From NCBI RefSeq assembly GCF_001311075.1, contig NZ_BBAD01000008.1, positions 1-63,325 of the forward strand: a DNA stretch of 63,325 bases, read 5' to 3'. A program made the position numbers and the translations under genes. Shown one piece after another: positions 24,934-47,730 of this stretch. The DNA is from Secundilactobacillus similis DSM 23365 = JCM 2765. Its GTDB lineage: Bacteria; Bacillota; Bacilli; Lactobacillales; Lactobacillaceae. Each line of letters begins with the position of its first letter. The stretch's first letter is position 1. A model generated the notes under the pieces. That model made no database searches and had not been told where the DNA came from. It worked only from the letters and a program-made list of their open reading frames with translations.

Positions 24934-24948
24934 TCGGTGTGCGGTGCG

Positions 24949-24980
24949 AGAGACGCTCGAGTAATCGGGGGTCTCTTTTT
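24949..24980 (+). terminator. Terminator of yneF
   Basis: A 6-bp stem (24949-24954 with 24971-24976) followed by TTTTT. Confidence 0.6.
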
Positions 24981-24986
24981 GTGCAG

Positions 24987-25120
24987 AGAGTGGAAAAGGG
25001 CGGTTAGAGAGCAGTGTGTAAGGGGGCTTCAGTAAAAGCGCCTTGGGCCTGGGCGGTTTTACTGAAGCCCCCTTACATGCAGCTCTCTGCCCTTCGGAAC
25101 TCGTTTAGGCTCGAGGACAG
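24987..25120 (+). repeat. Structured hairpin element, copy A
   Basis: First member of a three-copy family. Nested helices: H1 24996-25001 with 25089-25094 (plus 4 further pairs outside an internal loop); a left-side bulge GGTT (25002-25005); H2 25006-25012 with 25082-25088; internal loop AGTG/TGCA; and a 21-bp H3, 25017-25037 with 25057-25077. The shared tail CGTTTAGGCTCGAGGACAG lies at 25102-25120. No T run follows. The rest of 24934-25302 has only the yneF terminator and the region upstream of the ABC genes. Confidence 0.7.
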
Positions 25121-25302
25121 CAACGAGCATGAAATGATGCTGAATGGGAAGTCGTTTATATATTGAACGCTATTTCAGCAGAACTAGATCACTTCAAAGC
25201 TACCCAACACCTTTTATTAGACATCTTCACCAATTGTGTTAATATTGTAACGTTTCTGTGTTTTTGAACGGTTAAAAGCCACGATGGCAAGGGAGGGACA
25301 TC

Positions 25303-27070
25303 ATGAGCATTTTTAAGAAACTTGGCTGGTACTTTCGGGCTGAGTGGCGAACTTATTTATTCGGGCTACTGGGGCTGTTGCTAACAGCCCTGTTTGCCAT
25401 TATTCCGCCGCGAGTCATTGGGGTCGTTGTGGATTTGATCCACGATCAACGCTTAACGCGTCAGTCATTAATTTGGAATCTGGGTCTACTGTTGATTGCG
25501 GGTTTTGGTCAGTACGGCTCGCGATATATGTGGCGAACTGCAATTTGGGGTGCAGCTGCGAAACTAGAACAAACGTTACGACAACGCTTATTTGGCCATT
25601 ACATGCAATTAGATCAATCCTTTTATCAGCGGTACCGAACTGGGGATTTGATGGCTCGGGCAACTAATGACCTTCAGGCGATTCAACGGGTGGCCGGTGG
25701 CGGTATTTTACAATTTGCGGATTCCATTATTACGGGTGGGACGACGCTGATCGCGATGATGACGTTGATCAATTGGCGGTTAACGTTGATTGCTGTCCTG
25801 CCGTTTCCGTTGTTAGCGGTCATGGCGTTTTATCTAGGCCAAAAGATCAACGTGGCCTTCCGTGATTCTCAAGCGGCGTTTTCACGACTCAATAATAAAG
25901 CCCAAGAGAGTATTAGTGGGGTCAAGGTGATTAAGAGTCTGGGTCAGGAACAAGAAGACATTGACGACTTTGAAGCGCAGGTGGATGAAACGATTAACGT
26001 TAATCGCCGGGTCAATCGACTTGATGCGCTGTTTGATCCGATCACCACGTTGATTATTGCGTTGGCCTACATGGCGACGATCGTCTTAGGTGGCTCGTTA
26101 GTGATGCAGCACGTGATCACCATTGGCAACTTAGTGTCATTTACGACTTACCTTGCATGATGATTTGGCCGATTTTTGCGGTCGGAATGCTGTTTAACAC
26201 CATGGAACGTGGCAACGCTAGTTATGACCGGGTGATGCGGTTGATCAATGAAAAGTCACAGGTGATCGATCAACCCGATGGCGTGATGACCCGACCAAGT
26301 GGCACATTACGATTCGACATCACCGAGTTCCATTATCCAGATGACACGGCAATCGCGCTACACGACGTTGATTTTTCACTGGCAGCGGGCAAGACGCTTG
26401 GCATCGTTGGCCGGGTCGGTGCTGGCAAAACAACGATCATGCGGCTGTTGCTCCGCCAATTTGAACGGTATCAAGGGACGATTCAGTACGGTAAGACCGA
26501 CATTTTAGATTACCGGTTAGACGCGTATTTGCCGGCAGTGGGTACGTGCCTCAGGATGGCTTTTTATTCTCAGCGTCAGTTCGGGACAATATTACGTTTG
26601 CGAAACCTGATGCCACACAAGCTGAGGTTGAACAAGTTGTTGCGATGAGTGGATTAGCGGATCAAATTAGCCACTTTGAGTCAGGTTATGACACACTGGT
26701 TGGCGAAGAAGGGGTGTCGCTTTCTGGTGGTCAACGGCAACGGCTTGCGATTGCGCGGGCATTGTTGATCGACCCAGAATTGTTGATTTTAGATGACGCG
26801 TTATCTGCGGTCGATGCGGAAACTGAAAGTCGTATTTTGACCAACTTACACGCTGACCGACATCAGAAAACGACGATCATTGCAGCCCACCGGTTAAGTT
26901 CGGTGATGCAAGCGGACGAAATTCTTGTGCTGGATGCAGGTGGCATCGCTGAACGGGGGACGCATGATGAGTTAATGGCTCAAGATGGTTGGTACCGACA
27001 GATGTTTGATCGACAAGCACTGGAAACGAAGGTTCAACAAGGGAGGCGAGATGACGATGAAAACGACTGA
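25303..27070 (+). CDS. Heterodimeric ABC exporter, subunit 1
   Basis: A half-transporter with a six-helix exporter membrane domain (residues 1-310) and a C-terminal ATPase: Walker A GRVGAGKTT, signature LSGGQRQRLAIARA, Walker B LLILDDALSAVD and a downstream AAHRLSS switch His. The residue after Walker B is Asp instead of Glu, so one nucleotide site is degenerate, typical of the LmrC/YheI half of heterodimeric multidrug exporters. Two 1-nt deletions (about 26154-26156 and 26540-26543) break it. Restored length is 589 residues. It overlaps the next gene by 20 nt. Substrate unknown. Confidence 0.9.
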
Positions 27071-28849
27071 AAAACAATCAGTATGGGCGAAGAGTATGCC
27101 GATTAAGCAACAGATGCAGATCATCGGCCAATTGATTCGTTACGCCCGCCCGTATTGGAAATACTTTACGAGCGCAATTATTTTGGCGGCCCTGATTAGC
27201 GTCGTCAATATCTTGCTACCAATGATTATTCGAGTTTATATGGATAGTTACTTAAAGGTTGGTCGCGCGGACTTGCAGATCATGTGGTTCTTTGCAGGAC
27301 TCTACTTGTTTGCGATGGTGATCAAAGCGGTAATGCAGTTTAGTCAGGCCTATCTGTACAGCATGGGCGCCGAGTATATGCTGGAAAGTGTCCGGCGACA
27401 ACTTTTTCGAAAATTGCACCGCTTAGGCATGCGGTATTTTGACCAAGTGCCTGGTGGTTCGATCCTATCGCGGTTAACGAATGATACGATGTCGTTTACG
27501 ACGTTTTGGCAGTTATTTAGCAGTTTAGTCGTGGCGTTCTTCTCGGTGGTGTCGTCCGTGGTTGCGATGTTGTTATTGGACGTTAGAATCGCTGGCTGGT
27601 TGCTTCTCTTTCTACCCATTTTGGCGGTCGTAGTGTGGTACTACCAGCGTTACAGTTCCAAAATTTACCGGCACATGCGTGAACGTCTAAGTGAGTTAAA
27701 CGCCCGCTTGGCTGAGGCCATTACCGGAGTTAACGTAATCCAACAGTTTCGACAGGAAAAACGGATGAACGCAGCGTTTGAGGAAACGAACGGCAACTAT
27801 TTCACTGCTCGGAAGGCCATGATTCGGGTCAACGCCTTACTCTTGAGTCCGCTGATCAACTTACTCTACGCACTTGGCGTAGTTGTTGTGCTTGGTCTAC
27901 TTGGCATTCGCGGCATGGCAAGTTTTGTGCCGCTGGGATGGTGTATGCGTTTGTCACTTATCTGGACAACTTGTATAACCCAATGACTTCGATGATGGAT
28001 AACTTGAGTGACTTTCAAGATGGTATCGTGTCAGGATCGCGGGTAATGGCGCTGATGGCGGATGAAACTGCCGCACCACAGCAATCGCCAGTTGCGGGTC
28101 GAACGGTGACGGCTGGAAAAATTGAATTTCAACATGTGTCGTTTTCTTATGATGGTGAAACGCCAATCTTAAAAGATGTTTCGTTTGTGGCAAAGCCGGG
28201 ACAGACTGTAGCGCTAGTTGGTGAAACCGGGAGTGGTAAAACCTCCATCATCAACGTGCTGATGCGGTTTTATGAATTTCAGTCCGGTCGGGTTTTGATC
28301 GATGACCAAGATATTCGCACCTATTCAATGGCAGAATTGCGCCGAAAGTTCGGACTGGTATTGCAAGAACCCTTCCTGTTTTACGGCACGGTGGCGTCCA
28401 ACATTCGGATGTTTGATCAAAAAATCTCTGATCGACAAGTTCGAGCGGCGGCCAAATTCGTCAGTGCGGATAAGATGATCGAAGCACTGCCACGGGGGTA
28501 CGATTCCCGGGTCGTTGAGCGCGGGAGTGGTTACTCAAGCGGTCAACGCCAACTGATTTCATTTGCACGAACCGTAGTAACGGATCCTAAAGTACTTATT
28601 TTGGACGAGGCCACGGCTAATATTGATACGGAAACGGAACAAACGATTCAAACCAGTCTGGCAAAATTGCAGGCGGGCCGAACAACGATTGCGGTCGCGC
28701 ATCGCTTGTCAACGATTCAAAATGCGGACTTGATTTTGGTGCTATCACGCGGCCAAATTATTGAACGGGGCACTAACGATGAGTTAATGGCGCAACGGGG
28801 AACGTATTACGATATGATTCAGTTGCAGAATAGTGCGCATTTGGATTAA
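27051..28849 (+). CDS. Heterodimeric ABC exporter, subunit 2
   Basis: The partner half-transporter: membrane domain to about residue 330, then Walker A GETGSGKTS, signature YSSGQRQLISFART, Walker B VLILDEATANID with the catalytic Glu, and AHRLSTIQN. It corresponds to the LmrD/YheH half, which supplies the active ATP site. A 1-nt deletion at about 27935-27938 (GGG run) breaks the frame; restored length is 599 residues. GGGAGGCGAG before the ATG at 27051 supports this start, which overlaps subunit 1. Confidence 0.9.
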
Positions 28850-28857
28850 GGAGAGAG

Positions 28858-28993
28858 TGTGTGAAATCAGGCGCTTAGAAGGTGGAGTGTAAGGGACTTC
28901 CGGTTAAACGCTCCCGGGTTTTGGGTGCGTTTAACCGGAAGTCCCTTACATGCAACCTTCTGCCTGATTTCGCGCGTTTAGGCTAGATGACAG
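28858..28993 (+). repeat. Structured hairpin element, copy B
   Basis: Same plan as copy A with different stem sequences: H1 28864-28872 with 28962-28970, extended outward by mostly G.T wobble pairs; bulge GCTT (28873-28876); H2 28877-28883 with 28955-28961; internal loop GGAG/TGCA; and a 24-bp H3, 28888-28911 with 28927-28950. The tail CGCGCGTTTAGGCTAGATGA and CAG follow at 28971-28993. It starts 8 nt after the ABC operon stop codon and has no T run. Confidence 0.75.
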
Positions 28994-29070
28994 AAAAAAC
29001 ACATCTGGTTTGATCCTTCAAAATAACACCGCATATTGCATCGCGTACTGTTGTGCAAAGCGTAACCAAA

Positions 29071-29118
29071 AACAGGGCACCAGCTCATTGCAAACTTGCA
29101 ATGAGCTGGTGCCCTGTT
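29071..29118. terminator. Terminator after plsC (probably bidirectional)
   Basis: A perfect 23-bp inverted repeat (29071-29093 with 29096-29118) with a 2-nt loop, between the convergent ABC operon and plsC. Confidence 0.85.
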
Positions 29119-29138: not shown

Positions 29139-29771
29139 TTAATGTTTCGCTTCATCAGGCGTATCCACATAATGGAACTCAGGATCAATCTCTTTGTCCA
29201 GTCGATCAAATCCAGCCTGCATCTGTTGTTCAATCTGCTTGAAGCCGGTTTCGTCAAGTTTGAGTTTGGGGTCAACGTAGAAGGGTTCGCCAAATGAAAC
29301 GGTAACGGGTTTCCGTGTGAAAAGCTGTTTGAACGTCAATGGGCCTTGGTAGACGGTGGGCACAATTGGCACCTTGGATAACTTGGCGATAACCGCAACG
29401 CCACCCTTTAAATCTTGCGAGTGACGAGTCCCAGATGGAAACATGATGAGGGACAAGTCGCTCTTTTTAAGCAGACGGACGGGCGTTTTGATTGCGGATG
29501 GGCCAGGATTATCCCGGTTAACTGGAAACGCATTTGCGTGTTTGAGAATGTATCTCAAAATGGGATTTTTAAAGAGTTCGATTTTAGCCATAAAACTAAA
29601 TTTTTTGGGACTGGCCGCCACTGCGTAGTAGATGGGGTCAAACCAGGTTCGGTGGGGGCCCACAAGGATGTAATTGCCTTCAGGTAGCCGGTCGGTATTC
29701 TCGTAATGGGCGTTGCCATTGACTAAGAATAAAATGATACGCACGACGACACGAATAAATGAATAAAACAT
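29139..29771 (-). CDS. plsC: 1-acyl-sn-glycerol-3-phosphate acyltransferase
   Basis: A 210-residue membrane-associated enzyme that adds the second acyl chain in phosphatidic acid synthesis. It has an N-terminal membrane helix (about residues 4-20), the catalytic H-x4-D motif in GPHRTWFDPIYY, and the substrate motif FPSGTRHSQDLKGG. The product is the substrate for CdsA encoded at 38.8 kb. The frame is intact. Confidence 0.9.
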   Translation of the reverse strand: MFYSFIRVVVRIILFLVNGNAHYENTDRLPEGNYILVGPHRTWFDPIYYAVAASPKKFSFMAKIELFKNPILRYILKHANAFPVNRDNPGPSAIKTPVRLLKKSDLSLIMFPSGTRHSQDLKGGVAVIAKLSKVPIVPTVYQGPLTFKQLFTRKPVTVSFGEPFYVDPKLKLDETGFKQIEQQMQAGFDRLDKEIDPEFHYVDTPDEAKH

Positions 29772-42986: not shown

Positions 42987-45900
42987 GTGGCGTTAGATCA
43001 CCAGCAATTATTTGAAAAATTATTGACACAGTTGCAGCTGCCGGATGATACCGACCAGTCTGTGTTCCAAGGTGCTGAGCTTGAACAATTAACGGTTCAC
43101 GCCCAGTCTAAGCGGTGGCACTTTAAGTTTAAGTTGCCGGCAATTTTGCCATTTCAAACGTTTTTAACGTTTCAGGGTCAGCTGCACAACGCCTTTCAGG
43201 CCATTGCACAAGTTGATTTTGAAATTGAAACGGCACAACCAGCGTTAAGCAATCGCCTGATTGGTGACTATTGGAACTGGGTCGTGCAACATAGTGGTTT
43301 GAACTCACCATTGGTTCAAGAACTCTGTCGGGACCAAGTGCCGCGACTAGAGGACGACCGGGTTATTTTTATGGCTGAAAACGAGGTCGTCAAAAACTTT
43401 TTGGTGAACCAAGCACTGGGACCAATTGAAAACCAGTACACGACGTATGGTTTTCCGAAGTTTTCGATTCACACCATGGTTGATGAATCAGCCTCGCAAC
43501 AAAAAATCAATGAATTCAAGCAACAAAAAGCGCAACACGATGCTGAAATGGCCCAAAAAGCGGTTGCGGCGTTAAAAGTTGCCAACGAAAAACGTGAAAA
43601 ACAGGGTGGTAAAGCCATTCCGAATGGTCCAACCGTCATCGGTCGAAAGATTAAAGACGGCAATAATGTGATGCAGTTGATCGCCATTGAAGAAGAGGAA
43701 AAGTCCGTTATCGTTCAGGGGTACGTCTTTAGTAAAGAAATTCGGGACTTACGTTCTGGCCGAAAGCTGATGATTCTTGAAATCACCGACTATACCTCAT
43801 CAATCGTGGTTAAAAAGTTCTCTCGGGATGATGGCGATGAAGCGCAATTCGATGGATTGAACGAAGGCGATTGGATCAAGGTTCGTGGGAGTGTCCAAGA
43901 GGATAACTTTATGCGTGATCTTGTTTTAAACGCTTATGATATTAACCAAATCAAGGTTCAAACTCGTCAGGATACTGCGCCAGAGGGCGAGAAACGGGTT
44001 GAACTGCATTTACACACCTCAATGAGTACGATGGATGCCACTAATTCAATCACTGATTACGTGAAGCGGGCTAAAAAGTGGGGGCAAGATGCGATTGCCA
44101 TCACTGATCACGCTGGTGTTCAGGGTTTCCCTGAAGCGTTCGCTGCGGGTCAAAAAAACGACGTAAAGATCATCTATGGGGTTGAAGCCAACCTCGTTGA
44201 TGACGGTGTACCAATTGGGTATAACAGTGAGCATCGTCAATTAGAGGGTGCTACCTACGTGATCTTTGACGTTGAAACGACTGGGTTATCCGCAATCTAT
44301 GACCGGGTGATCGAACTTTCAGCGGTGAAGATGCAGGGGAAGGAAGTCATTGATCAATTTGAGGAATTCATTGATCCTGGCTTCCACCTATCAGATCAAA
44401 CGACTGAATTGACGAGTATTACGGATGATATGGTGCGCGGTTCGAAGTCCGAAAAGGAAGTCTTTGAACTTTTCCGGGAATTTTACGGTGACGCGATTAT
44501 CGTTGGGCATAACGTGACGTTTGATATTGGTTTCATGAACGCTGGTTATCGGCGTTATGACTTACCAGAAGTGTCAAACCCGATTATTGATACCTTGACG
44601 TTGGCCCGGTTCTTATACCCGACGTTGAAAGGTACCGGTTAAATACGTTGGCCAAAAAGTTCCACGTGGCTTTGGAACACCATCACCGGGCGGTCTATGA
44701 TGCGGAATCAACCGGCCATTTGAACTACATCTTCTTGAAGGATGCTGAGGAACGCTACCAGATTCAGTATCATGACCAGTTGAATGATCATATGAGTGAT
44801 AACGATGCTTATAAGCATGCCCGGCCATCTCACGCCATCATTTTGGCGCAGACGCAAGAAGGGTTGAAGAATCTGTTTAAGCTGGTGTCGATGTCCAACG
44901 TCAAGTATTTCTACCGGGTGCCACGGGTACCACGGAGCTTGTTGGAACAATACCGCGAAGGGTTGTTAATCGGCTCGGCTTGTGATTCCGGTGAAGTATT
45001 CACTGCGATGATGCAAAAGGGTTACGCTGAAGCACGACAAAAGGCCAAGTTCTTTGATTATTTGGAAGTGCAACCAACAGCGGCTTACAAGCCATTGATC
45101 GATAGCGGTTTGATTCAAAATAAGAAAAACCTGCAAGAAATCCTAGCAAATATGGTTAAGCTTGGCGACGATTTGGACAAACCAGTCGTCGTCACGGGTG
45201 ACACCCACTATCTGGATGAACACGATTCGATTTATCGTAAAATCTTGATTCATTCGCAAGGTGGGGCTAACCCGTTGAACCGTCAGGAATTGCCAGACGT
45301 GCATTTTAGAACCACCGATGAACTATTGGCTGATTATGACTTCTTAGGAGCTGAAACGGCTAAAAAATTAGTGGTCACCAATACACACCTGATTGCGGAT
45401 AAGATTGATGAGGTCCATCCGCTGAAGGATAAGCTGTACACGCCACGGATGGAAGGTGCCGAAGACGAAATCCGAGAACGGACGATCAACACCGCTCACG
45501 AGTGGTACGGTGATCCGCTACCAGAAATCGTGCAACACCGATTGGATCGAGAACTCAAAAGTATCATTGGGAATGGGTTCTCCGTGATCTACCTGATTGC
45601 GCAACGGTTAGTGCACAAGAGTAACAAAGACGGGTACTTGGTTGGATCCCGGGGGTCCGTTGGTTCTAGTTTAGTGGCAACGATGACCGGGATTACCGAA
45701 GTGAACCCGTTGCCACCACATTACCGGTGTCCAAACTGTCAGCACTCAGAGTTCTTTACGAAGGGTGAATATAGTTCTGGATTTGACCTTCCCGAAAAAA
45801 ACTGTCCAGAGTGTGGCACGTTGATGATTGGTGACGGTCATGATATTCCGTTCGAAACATTCTTGGGCTTTACCGGGAACAAGGTGCCCGATATTGATTT

Positions 45901-47315
45901 GAACTTCTCGGGGGACTACCAACCAATCGCCCACAACTACACCAAGGTGTTGTTCGGTGAAAAGAACGTGTACCGGGCCGGAACGATTGGTACCGTGGCG
46001 GATAAAACCGCGTACGGATACGTGAAGGCCTACGAACGGGATACGGAATCTAACTTCCGTAATGCCGAAATTGACCGGTTAGCTAAAGGCGCTACCGGTG
46101 TCAAACGGACCACTGGTCAACATCCGGCGGGGATCATTGTTGTGCCCGACTATATGGAGATCTACGACTTTACGCCGATCCAGTATCCGGCTGATGATCA
46201 AAATGCCGCTTGGCAAACGACCCACTTTGATTTCCACTCGATCCATGACAACATCTTGAAAATCGATATTCTGGGACATGATGATCCCACGATGATCCGG
46301 ATGCTCCAAGATTTGAGCGGGATCGATCCCCAGACGATTCCAATGGATGATCCAGCGTCATGGCGCTGTTTTCCGGTACGGAGTCGCTGAACGTGACGCC
46401 AGAACAGATTCAATCAAAAACGGGGACACTTGGTGTGCCTGAATTTGGGACGCGGTTTGTTCGAGGCATGTTAGAGGAAACCCATCCAAGTAACTATTCG
46501 GAACTGCTCCAAATTTCTGGCCTATCTCACGGGACTGACGTGTGGTTAGGTAATGCCGAAGAGCTGATCAAGAACGGGACTGCTACGATTGCCAACGTGA
46601 TTGGTTGTCGTGATAACATCATGACCGACTTGATCCACTGGGGCATGGATTCCGAAATTGCCTTCCAAATCATGGAACACGTGCGGAAGGGCCGTGGGAT
46701 TCCAGACGAGTGGCAGGATAAAATGAAGGAAGCCGAAGTGCCGGACTGGTACATTGATTCTTGTTTGAAGATCAAGTACATGTTCCCGCGGCCCATGCGG
46801 CAGCTTACATTTTGATGGCGCTGCGGGTCGCTTACTTCAAGGTTTACTTCCCAATGGTTTACTACGCCGCGTATTTCTCAGTTCGAGCTGAAGACTTTGA
46901 TGTCGTTGCCATGTCACGTGGTAAAGAATCGGTTAAGGCGAAGATGAAGGAAATCAACGACGAAGGGATGGACGCGTCAACCAAGGAAAAGAACCTGTTA
47001 ACGGTTTTGGAATTGGCGAACGAAATGCTGGAACGGGGCTTTAAGTTTAAGATGATCGACATTGAAAAATCAGCTGCCAACGAATGGCTGATCGATGGCG
47101 ATACGTTGATCGCACCGTTCAACTCAGCACCAGGATTAGGCTTGAACGTGGCCAAGCAAATCGTGGCTGCGCGTGAAGACAAGCCATTCCTGTCAAAAGA
47201 AGATTTGGCTAAACGTGGGAAAGTATCTAAGACATTGATCGAATTTATGACGGACAATGGGGTTCTTGAAGGGTTACCGGATGAGAATCAGTTGAGTTTG
47301 TTTGATATGATGTAG
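42987..47315 (+). CDS. polC: DNA polymerase III alpha subunit, PolC type
   Basis: The replicative polymerase of Gram-positives, with built-in 3'-5' proofreading. Domains in order: N-terminal domain, OB fold, PHP ([16 protein letters not shown]), DEDDh exonuclease inserted in PHP ([10 protein letters not shown] to HNVTFDIGF), zinc finger (CPNC and CPEC), then the polymerase with [12 protein letters not shown] and the late HhH region. Three 1-nt deletions (about 44633, 46352-46354 and 46786-46790) split it. Restored length is 1443 residues, as expected. The start is GTG 42987, after GGGGG. Breaks in an essential single-copy gene strongly suggest sequence errors. Confidence 0.96.
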
Positions 47316-47316
47316 A

Positions 47317-47446
47317 GTGTGAAAAAGCTCGTTTAGACCCCAGAGCATAAGCAAAGCACCCCTAAATTCCTGTTTTTTGGAATTTAGGGGTGCTTTGCTT
47401 ATGCGGCCGGGTCTGAGCTTTTTCGCACGTTTCGGCTAGAGGACAG
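47317..47446 (+). repeat. Structured hairpin element, copy C
   Basis: Third copy, beginning 2 nt after the polC stop. H1 is 47317-47330 with 47415-47428 (14 bp, one G.T pair); bulge GTTT (47331-47334); H2 47335-47340 with 47409-47414; internal loop CAGAG/CGGCC; and a 25-bp H3, 47346-47370 with 47379-47403, around a T-rich loop. The tail CGCACGTTTCGGCTAGAGGA and CAG ends at 47446. Confidence 0.75.
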
Positions 47447-47730
47447 TTTTAAATTAAAATAGCTCTTCGCACAATTTCGAGCGAGATAACCAATTTGATA
47501 CTTACTCAGGTAACGTAATTCCGTGGACTTTGTCCTTATATGGCCGGGACCTGCGTGTTTTCGCACGTTTCGGCTAGATAACAGTCGTGAATTAAAGCGG
47601 CTCTTCACACAATTTCGAGTGAAGCAACCAGTTTGATGCTTACCCAGGTAACGTAAGTCCGTGGACGGTTGCCCATATACGGCCGGAACCTGCGTGTTGC
47701 CACCGGCTTTGACTAACTAACAATCATGTG
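47405..47730 (+). repeat. 138-bp tandem repeat, about 2.3 copies
   Basis: Units begin with GGCCGG at 47405, 47542 and 47681, giving periods of 137 and 139 bp. Each full unit contains CGCACGTTTCGGCTAGA, then AATTTCGAG, CAGGTAACGTAA and CGTGGAC. The third unit is partial and degenerates after about 47730. The unit starts inside hairpin copy C, so the right half of that element was duplicated. Nothing else is seen in 47731-47930. Confidence 0.75.

What the first reader, a model, noticed from the sequence alone, without database searches (positions are those of the whole stretch)
24987..28993. Family of large structured intergenic hairpins with fully covarying stems (copies A and B; copy C at 47317-47446)
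Three elements share one architecture: outer helix H1, a 4-nt left-side bulge of form GNTT, helix H2 that always opens AGA/TCT, a small internal loop, a 21-25-bp helix H3, and directly after H1 a near-identical tail (CGNRCGTTTMGGCTAGAKGA and CAG). The stem sequences differ completely between copies (H1 AAGGGC, AAATCAGGC, AAAAAGCTC) yet always pair, so structure is selected, not sequence. Outward extensions use G.T pairs that work only if the plus-strand RNA folds, so the RNA reads in the direction of the upstream gene. Copies B and C begin within 10 nt of a stop codon, and none is followed by a T run, so they are not ordinary terminators. I know no named family with this pattern.
Basis: partly seen in the sequence, partly recalled or inferred. 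Interest (0 to 1): 0.78.

Follow-up and report, generated by a model that had tools for sequence, protein, structure and literature searches.

The report
Lactic-acid-bacteria-wide dispersed hairpin repeat
The three hairpins belong to a large, apparently undescribed family of repeated DNA elements, found in many copies across lactic acid bacteria and some relatives, whose folded shape is kept while the stem letters change, and which looks like a small mobile hairpin rather than an ordinary gene-end signal.

Summary
The tail alone occurs at 92 places in the host genome (Secundilactobacillus; reversed-pattern control 1). A covariance model from 25 copies matched all 150 candidates scored there, 128 of 251 Lactobacillaceae genomes, 12 genomes of other Lactobacillales families, 8 of them weakly, and 0 of 298 other genomes of the phylum. 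34 of 43 pairs change on both sides; 0 of 500 shuffles reach this. Rfam has no match. G·U outnumbers A·C 87 to 19: the plus strand folds. Best reading: a non-autonomous BOX/REP-like dispersed hairpin that spreads within genomes (identical hairpins at two loci; occupied and empty plasmid sites, tandem gain and loss), in this genus often directly after stop codons. Features of REP, attC and terminators that were tested are not met. Against a pure 3'-UTR role, copies outside 3' UTRs are equally well paired. One plasmid copy has one arm rewritten from the other, so covariation is not only selection. Mobilising enzyme and function remain unknown.

The parts
24986..25129 (+). Copy A, type I: H0 24988-24991/25099-25102, H1 24996-25001/25089-25094, bulge GGTT 25002-25005, H2 25006-25012/25082-25088, H3 25014-25037/25057-25080, tail 25102-25120
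   Evidence: model R1 137.7 bits; fold -88.3 kcal/mol for 24980-25135
24948..24980 (+). terminator-like hairpin and T run of the upstream gene, directly before copy A
   Evidence: sequence, positions
28857..29002 (+). Copy B: H0+H1 28855-28872/28962-28979, bulge GCTT 28873-28876, H2 28877-28883/28955-28961, H3 28887-28911/28927-28951, tail 28975-28993
   Evidence: model R1 124.7 bits; fold -97.1 kcal/mol for 28850-29010
29073..29116 (.). separate hairpin downstream of copy B; T run on the minus strand (towards the convergent ORF ending at 29139), only TTT on the plus strand
   Evidence: sequence, positions
47315..47455 (+). Copy C, type II: H0+H1 47317-47330/47415-47428, bulge GTTT 47331-47334, H2 47335-47340/47409-47414, H3 47345-47370/47379-47404, tail 47428-47446; begins at the G of the TAG stop (47313-47315) of the upstream gene, read here as polC
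   Evidence: model R1 124.8 bits; fold -81.7 kcal/mol for 47310-47460
47456..47719 (+). tandem degenerate 3'-half units after copy C (3' arm, tail at 47566-47584, about 60-nt spacer): one 5' arm followed by several 3' arms; end of the stretch judged by eye
   Evidence: sequence; second tail match; self-matches of the stretch downstream of copy C

Best explanation
A non-autonomous dispersed hairpin repeat of the order Lactobacillales. The unit runs from AGAGTG through a hairpin of 43 modelled pairs to CACGTTT(MGGCT), often followed by a short tail and a further domain of about 60 nt that differs between three types. SHOWN: many copies per genome, covariation, plus-strand folding, recent copying within the genome, occupied and empty sites, tandem gain and loss. 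INFERRED: some enzyme or process recognises the folded plus strand (as RNA or as single-stranded DNA) through the conserved unpaired motifs (AGAG.G...CGTTT ends, GNTT bulge, H2/H3 internal loop) plus the near-invariant TAAG/CTTA pairs, and copies the unit to new intergenic sites; insertions survive where they break nothing, such as right after a stop codon or just after a terminator. Stems stay paired partly by selection on the folded strand and partly by arm-to-arm template switching. When transcribed, as in many 3' UTRs here, the hairpin probably affects mRNA 3' ends (stability or RNase III cleavage) as a side effect.
For: Copying: hairpins at C7:32913- and C72:10835+ identical in 43 of 43 pairs at different loci, with different tails. 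Occupied and empty sites: at the B site the model hits own, G251, G254 and G237 and none of the other 11 genomes; at the C site it hits own and G254, G251 keeps a first piece cut by other DNA, the other 12 have no hit. A plasmid 5'-leader site is occupied in 3 and empty in 3 of the 6 records fetched, at about 93-96% identity. Tandem gain and loss: 1 unit, 3 units or an internally deleted unit in L. paracasei plasmids with 98.3-99.5% identical flanks. Plus strand: G.U 87 against A.C 19, four wobble columns excluded. Pairing independent of 3'-UTR position: non-canonical cells 1.04% beside sense stops (36 copies), 1.0% beside divergent genes (21 copies). Arm rewriting: L324 against L326. Specificity: 0 of 298 other phylum genomes, 10 candidates scored each.
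Against: No mobilising enzyme found: Y1 transposase is absent from 10 of 13 element-bearing genomes and RVT_1 from 10 of 13; no other enzyme was tested. In this genus the 5' end lies within 12 nt of a sense stop in 36 of 84 copies while the model's 3' end lies within 12 nt of an opposite-strand ORF end in only 2, which random insertion does not explain. At the cleanest empty site the flanks differ by several bases, so the exact insertion event is not reconstructed, and deletion in the empty records is not excluded. Identical hairpins with different tails could be gene conversion, not transposition. Only three sites (A, B, C) were compared across the genus, so turnover is rough.
Confidence: 0.5

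Rival explanations
1. Host-serving 3'-UTR RNA element: a protein or RNase III-type enzyme recognises the hairpin after the stop codon and stabilises or processes the mRNA 3' end; copies spread by duplication and gene conversion because they are useful.
For: 36 of 84 copies start within 12 nt of a sense stop, 2 model ends lie that close to an opposite-strand ORF end; terminator-like hairpin within 220 nt downstream in 18 of 36 such copies, 3 of 21 other sense copies, 6 of 21 beside divergent genes, 2 of 78 shuffled controls; plus-strand folding; the B site is occupied in own, G251 and G254 although stem sequences differ.
Against: Copies beside divergent genes are as well paired; in another genus only 2 of 38 arrays lie at a sense stop, and 118 arrays show no bias with replication; 5'-leader insertion in plasmids; 123 of 251 genomes of the family show no match.
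Confidence: 0.27
2. Mutational artefact: replication template switching between the arms keeps the hairpins perfect; neither RNA nor mobility is needed.
For: L324 5' arm is the exact complement of its 3' arm, unlike L326; two-sided changes cluster at neighbouring pairs, 35 against 23.8 expected, 6 of 1000 simulations as high; the mechanism is described in PMC8794818 (outline and abstract seen).
Against: G.U exceeds A.C 87 to 19, which arm-copying does not predict; in none of 102 foldable own copies is the H2/H3 junction fully paired on its 5' side, 9 are nearly so; one-sided changes exceed two-sided ones in the closest copies, 28 to 11 over 17 related pairs; it does not explain dispersal or conserved unpaired motifs.
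Confidence: 0.08
3. REP/RAYT-type or other IS200/IS605 hairpin repeat.
For: Dispersed hairpins with conserved ends, one strand folded.
Against: Y1_Tnp (PF01797) in 3 of 13 element-bearing and 5 of 15 element-negative genomes; no GTAG head; the unit is about 120 nt, not 20-40.
Confidence: 0.04
4. Intrinsic transcription terminators of unusual length.
For: Strong hairpins at gene ends.
Against: No T run after the hairpin; many sit before a separate terminator-like hairpin (18 of 36 stop-adjacent copies) or directly after one (copy A).
Confidence: 0.03
5. Integron-like attC recombination sites.
For: Structure kept while sequence varies, located after stop codons, tandem arrays.
Against: GTT is followed by an invariant T, so GTTRRRY is not met, and the 5' side has AGAGTG, not RYYYAAC (core motifs recalled); upstream genes include what reads as polC.
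Confidence: 0.03

Closest known systems
BOX elements of Streptococcus pneumoniae (PMC3049150, passages seen)
   Same: small interspersed repeats, 125 BOX in one genome, modular with variable tandem inner units, outer modules form most of the fold, expressed in some cases
   Different: the paper reports terminal inverted repeats and target duplications, and near absence outside pneumococcus and S. mitis apart from relatives in S. suis; here no clear target duplication was seen, the family spans several Lactobacillales families, and stems share little sequence
REP/BIME with RAYT (PMC2817692, passages seen)
   Same: high-copy palindromes thought to act as folded single strands; that paper also notes that palindromes are preserved, suggesting complementary mutations
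   Different: GT(A/G)G head and Y1 transposase; 20-40 bp by the PMC3733652 abstract; these do not fit here
EFAR repeats of Enterococcus faecalis (recalled from an abstract; only a one-line mention seen in PMC3733652)
   Same: folded repeats, most of about 170 bp, in a member of the same order, inserted in stem-loops (recalled)
   Different: EFAR are recalled to delete most of the target stem-loop; at the one terminator compared here (L316 against L304) the target stays intact.
NEMIS/Correia elements and other MITEs (named in passages of PMC3049150 and PMC3733652)
   Same: short folded intergenic insertions, transcribed, possible RNase III targets
   Different: MITEs are described there with terminal inverted repeats and target duplications; not clearly seen here

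Membership tests
REP/RAYT system | cognate Y1 (RAYT) transposase in genomes rich in the repeat | tested here: not met
   PF01797 in 3 of 13 element-bearing, 5 of 15 element-negative genomes (negative means no match)
REP/RAYT system | GT(A/G)G head, 20-40 nt palindrome | tested here: not met
   base counts show A at -1 and a GAG.G start, no GTAG; modelled unit 142 positions with tail
MITE / BOX | target-site duplication | tested here: inconclusive
   no clear duplication at the multicopper oxidase site, 3 occupied and 3 empty records, but flanks differ by several bases
MITE / BOX | terminal inverted repeats shared between copies | tested here: inconclusive
   5' end AGAGTG and 3' end CACGTTTMGGCT are not inverted repeats beyond the hairpin foot GTG/CAC; by inspection only, no TIR program run
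BOX | boxA/boxB/boxC sequence homology | not tested
   box sequences not fetched; compared from text only
Integron attC | RYYYAAC and GTTRRRY core sites (recalled) | tested here: not met
   GTTT invariant in 25 of 25 rows, 5' end GAG.G
Intrinsic terminator | T run directly after the hairpin | tested here: not met
   3'-flank base counts over 84 copies show no T run
Any Rfam 15 family | match at the gathering score | tested here: not met
   window: only a tRNA; 8 loci at a relaxed threshold: over the elements only sub-threshold miRNA-type, RRE and similar matches; a near-threshold T-box lies outside the element
EFAR | sequence kinship and insertion into stem-loops with partial target deletion (recalled) | not testable with these tools
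   no EFAR sequence or full text held; model hits in other Lactobacillales families are unnamed

The most novel reading that the evidence does not exclude
An order-wide mobile element that is recognised only as a folded single strand: a long hairpin with a few conserved unpaired motifs and nearly free stem sequence, moved by a so far unknown mechanism, apparently neither Y1 transposase nor reverse transcriptase, to the edges of genes (after stop codons and terminators), with stems kept complementary partly by arm-to-arm rewriting. It would be a new transposition or copying mode for bacterial small repeats.
Probability: 0.3. Interest if true: 0.82.

Novelty: new variant of a known kind. Interest (0 to 1): 0.6.

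Why it matters
At least 150 copies of a large hairpin sit in one lactic acid bacterium, with similar numbers in relatives, and no Rfam family or paper found here describes them. They probably affect transcript 3' ends, assembly, RNA-seq interpretation and genome plasticity. They are also a natural test of an open question: how far covarying stems prove selection on RNA, given that one copy shows arm-to-arm rewriting while the wobble asymmetry indicates that a folded strand is nevertheless under selection.

Tried and rejected
Rfam at gathering and relaxed thresholds: no family. BLAST of Secundilactobacillus copies against plasmids (2 copies) and phages (1 copy): no match; copies from genus g12 found 14 and 25 plasmid records and, for the one tried, no phage. 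Long or autonomous versions carrying a gene: the type II 3' domain occurs at 14 places; 2 that lay near no tail match or listed model hit (C62:17336, C81:6005) were fetched, and each follows a hairpin with an extra insert of about 30 nt, no gene. Replication-strand bias: none in G248, 55 against 63 of 118 arrays, origin at base 1 and terminus at the middle assumed. Better pairing in 3'-UTR copies: no difference. Y1 transposase and RVT_1 as partners: not correlated (RVT_1 in 3 of 13 element-bearing and 4 of 15 negative genomes, one of those below the cut-off). Literature: the listings of searches show no paper describing this family in lactobacilli; subscription papers are mostly not held. Restriction to Lactobacillaceae, which I first concluded, was wrong: one search found it in 12 genomes of other Lactobacillales families (4 with E<=1e-14, and one of those, G652, is a near-identical copy also seen in three Lactobacillaceae genera).

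Rows dropped and limits: 5 of 30 first loci were left out of A1 (L006 internal deletion, L015 degenerate repeat, L018 partial, L021 contig end, L025 insert before the tail); A1 therefore favours full hairpins, and the model rewards pairing. The 92 tail places do not depend on structure. One search kept 85 of 123 distinct matches (tail within 5 mismatches); one copy (C95:9543) is counted twice, and also appears as a self-pair; one search uses 84, one search uses 83. Family, phylum and order searches scored only 10 to 13 candidates per genome with strict filters.
Full report
WHAT IS THERE. Copies A, B and C exist at the stated places and fold as described. The tail pattern CGTTTMGGCTAGAKGACAG with up to 3 mismatches occurs 52+40 times in the host genome, against 1+0 for the reversed pattern.

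STRUCTURE. An alignment of 25 full-length copies (25 of the first 30 loci) gives 43 pairs, 34 with changes on both sides. Cells paired 97.1% against 69.5% in shuffles, covariation score 0.779 against 0.229, 0 of 500 shuffles at least as high on all five measures; slid partners pair 36-48%. Anatomy: foot GTG/CAC, 3x3 loop, H1 7 bp, bulge GNTT, H2 7 bp, 3x3 loop (GGA/GCA in type I), H3 of about 20-27 bp nearly always beginning TAAG/CTTA, apical part, then CACGTTTMGGCT. Over 85 rows 93.6% of cells are Watson-Crick, 5.1% G.U, the rest other. Three 3' types follow the tail, sorted by eye.

SPREAD. Model R1 matched 150 of 150 scored candidates in the own genome, worst E 3.4e-19, of 1309 first-look candidates, so 150 is a lower bound. 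In the family 128 of 251 genomes match, own included, in 23 of 40 genera, with at most 12 candidates scored per genome; 83 of the 128 have a best E of 1e-14 or lower. The antisense strand of true copies reaches about 61 bits, so weaker hits could be bare hairpins. Copies from 19 genomes of 19 other genera, plus two Lentilactobacillus records, show the same architecture by eye in most cases; three of the 19 (L261, L262, L265) are one near-identical copy. In the phylum 0 of 298 others match; the listing shows two of the same order among the rows printed. In the order 24 of 246 match at E<=1e-8: own, 11 of the same family, 12 of other families, 4 of these 12 at E<=1e-14. Twenty stretches from these 12 show similar ends, bulge and TAAG/CTTA by eye in most cases, and 91.5% of cells pair against 55.6% in shuffles, on an alignment fitted to the model and holding one antisense row of 28; the measure 'further pair types' was reached by 12 of 500 shuffles, the other four by none.

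STRAND. With the four columns excluded in which G.U is common, G.U/U.G counts 87 and A.C/C.A 19 (p 1.4e-11; copies are related, so the p-value is nominal); the excluded columns hold 93 and 0. The plus strand is the one that folds. This fits RNA or one strand of single-stranded DNA; strand-biased mutation could add to it.

PLACE. Of 84 own copies the nearest left ORF is on the same strand in 57, opposite in 22, absent in 5; 36 start within 12 nt of the stop (29 TAG, 5 TAA, 2 TGA; TAG is 67 of 148 in held ORFs of 150 aa or more). The right neighbour is an opposite-strand ORF within 12 nt in 2. A terminator-like hairpin follows within 220 nt in 18 of 36 stop-adjacent copies, 3 of 21 other sense copies, 6 of 21 beside divergent genes, 2 of 78 shuffled controls. 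In L010/L011 two facing elements share one terminator-like hairpin. ORF calls are crude and the draft has frameshifts. In genus g12, 51 units form 38 arrays: left neighbour same strand 15, opposite 22, none 1; 2 within 12 nt of a sense stop; several directly after terminator T runs or beside Shine-Dalgarno-like sequences of divergent genes.

HISTORY. At the C site (after what reads as polC) the model hits own and G254; G251 keeps about the first 33 nt of an element, then other DNA that looks like an insertion sequence; the other 12 of 15 genomes have no hit. Own is type II, G254 type I at the same site. At the B site (after the ABC gene) the model hits own, G251, G254 and G237, the last about 32 nt further on; the other 11 have no hit, one of which (G088) may not be a true ortholog. 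Copy A has no model hit at its site in the G251, G254, G185, G162, G252 and G204 stretches. Hairpins at C7:32913- and C72:10835+ are identical in all 43 pairs while their tails differ: recent copying, by transposition or gene conversion. For copies 0-3 paired differences apart, two-sided to one-sided changes are 11 to 28; the ratio rises to about 5 with distance: stepwise compensation. Two-sided changes cluster, 35 against 23.8 expected, 6 of 1000 simulations as high.

PLASMIDS. Elements occur on Lacticaseibacillus, Pediococcus, Lactiplantibacillus and Latilactobacillus plasmids. After the PTS IID gene, L. paracasei plasmids with 98.3-99.5% identical flanks carry one unit (L324), three units joined as GCGTTT..AGAGCG, the last of them deleted inside (L326), or one internally deleted unit (L330, L331). 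The L324 5' arm is the exact complement of its 3' arm where L326 has loops: an arm rewritten from the other. Before a multicopper oxidase gene three fetched records carry the element (L328, L332, L336) and three do not (L333, L334, L337). P. acidilactici has full and internally deleted forms (L323, L335) (all).

MECHANISM. The best single reading is a dispersed, non-autonomous hairpin repeat that needs its plus strand folded. Against a purely host-serving 3'-UTR role: equal pairing beside divergent genes (1.0% against 1.04% non-canonical cells), the other genus and the 5'-leader insertion. Against purely mutational covariation: wobble asymmetry and kept internal loops: in 0 of 102 foldable own copies is the H2/H3 junction fully paired, in 9 nearly. 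Template switching as a source of compensatory changes is described in PMC8794818 (outline and abstract seen). The mobiliser is unknown: Y1_Tnp and RVT_1 each occur in 3 of 13 element-bearing genomes. The orientation bias at stop codons in this genus remains unexplained; transcription-coupled insertion or selection are both possible.

KNOWN RELATIVES. BOX, RUP and SPRITE (PMC3049150, passages), REP/RAYT (PMC2817692, passages) and EFAR (recalled; one mention in PMC3733652) are the nearest kinds; for REP the tested features are not met, for BOX and MITEs the tests are inconclusive or not run, EFAR could not be tested. I file it as a new family of small interspersed hairpin repeats, not as a member of any of these. 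The listings of paper searches show no description in lactobacilli.

Re-reading the calls changed these points: the hairpin after B is now given as mainly a minus-strand terminator, the B and C site counts rest on model hits, the weak hits outside the family are counted apart, and terminal inverted repeats are marked inconclusive.

Noticed in passing
window 25303-28849 and 42987-47315: Genes that are single long frames in most relatives (ABC transporter of about 601 aa, what reads as polC of about 1447 aa) are broken into several overlapping ORFs here, which points to sequencing errors in the draft rather than biology.
   Followed up: partly
L086, L088, L089, L091, L096, L112 and window 47456-47719: Full hairpin followed by tandem units of about 91 bp or more holding only the 3' arm and tail: one 5' arm with several competing 3' arms.
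   Followed up: partly
L261, L262, L265, L347: A nearly identical element with identical 45-nt upstream flank in four genomes of different genera, one of another family: recent horizontal transfer or contamination.
   Followed up: no
L189 (G251 downstream of polC): The element at this site is interrupted after about 33 nt by what looks like an insertion sequence.
   Followed up: no
L025 1808-2052 +: T-box leader just below the gathering score (92.4 against 93 bits).
   Followed up: no
L025, L278, L279: Type II variants with an extra segment of about 30 nt (GAYYCAGCR.. ..TTGG..) between hairpin foot and GTTTAG.
   Followed up: partly
L329 1635 onward against L338-L340: A relBE-like toxin-antitoxin module, 99% or more identical in many plasmids, begins right where the element ends, so the element edge is also a recombination edge.
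   Followed up: partly
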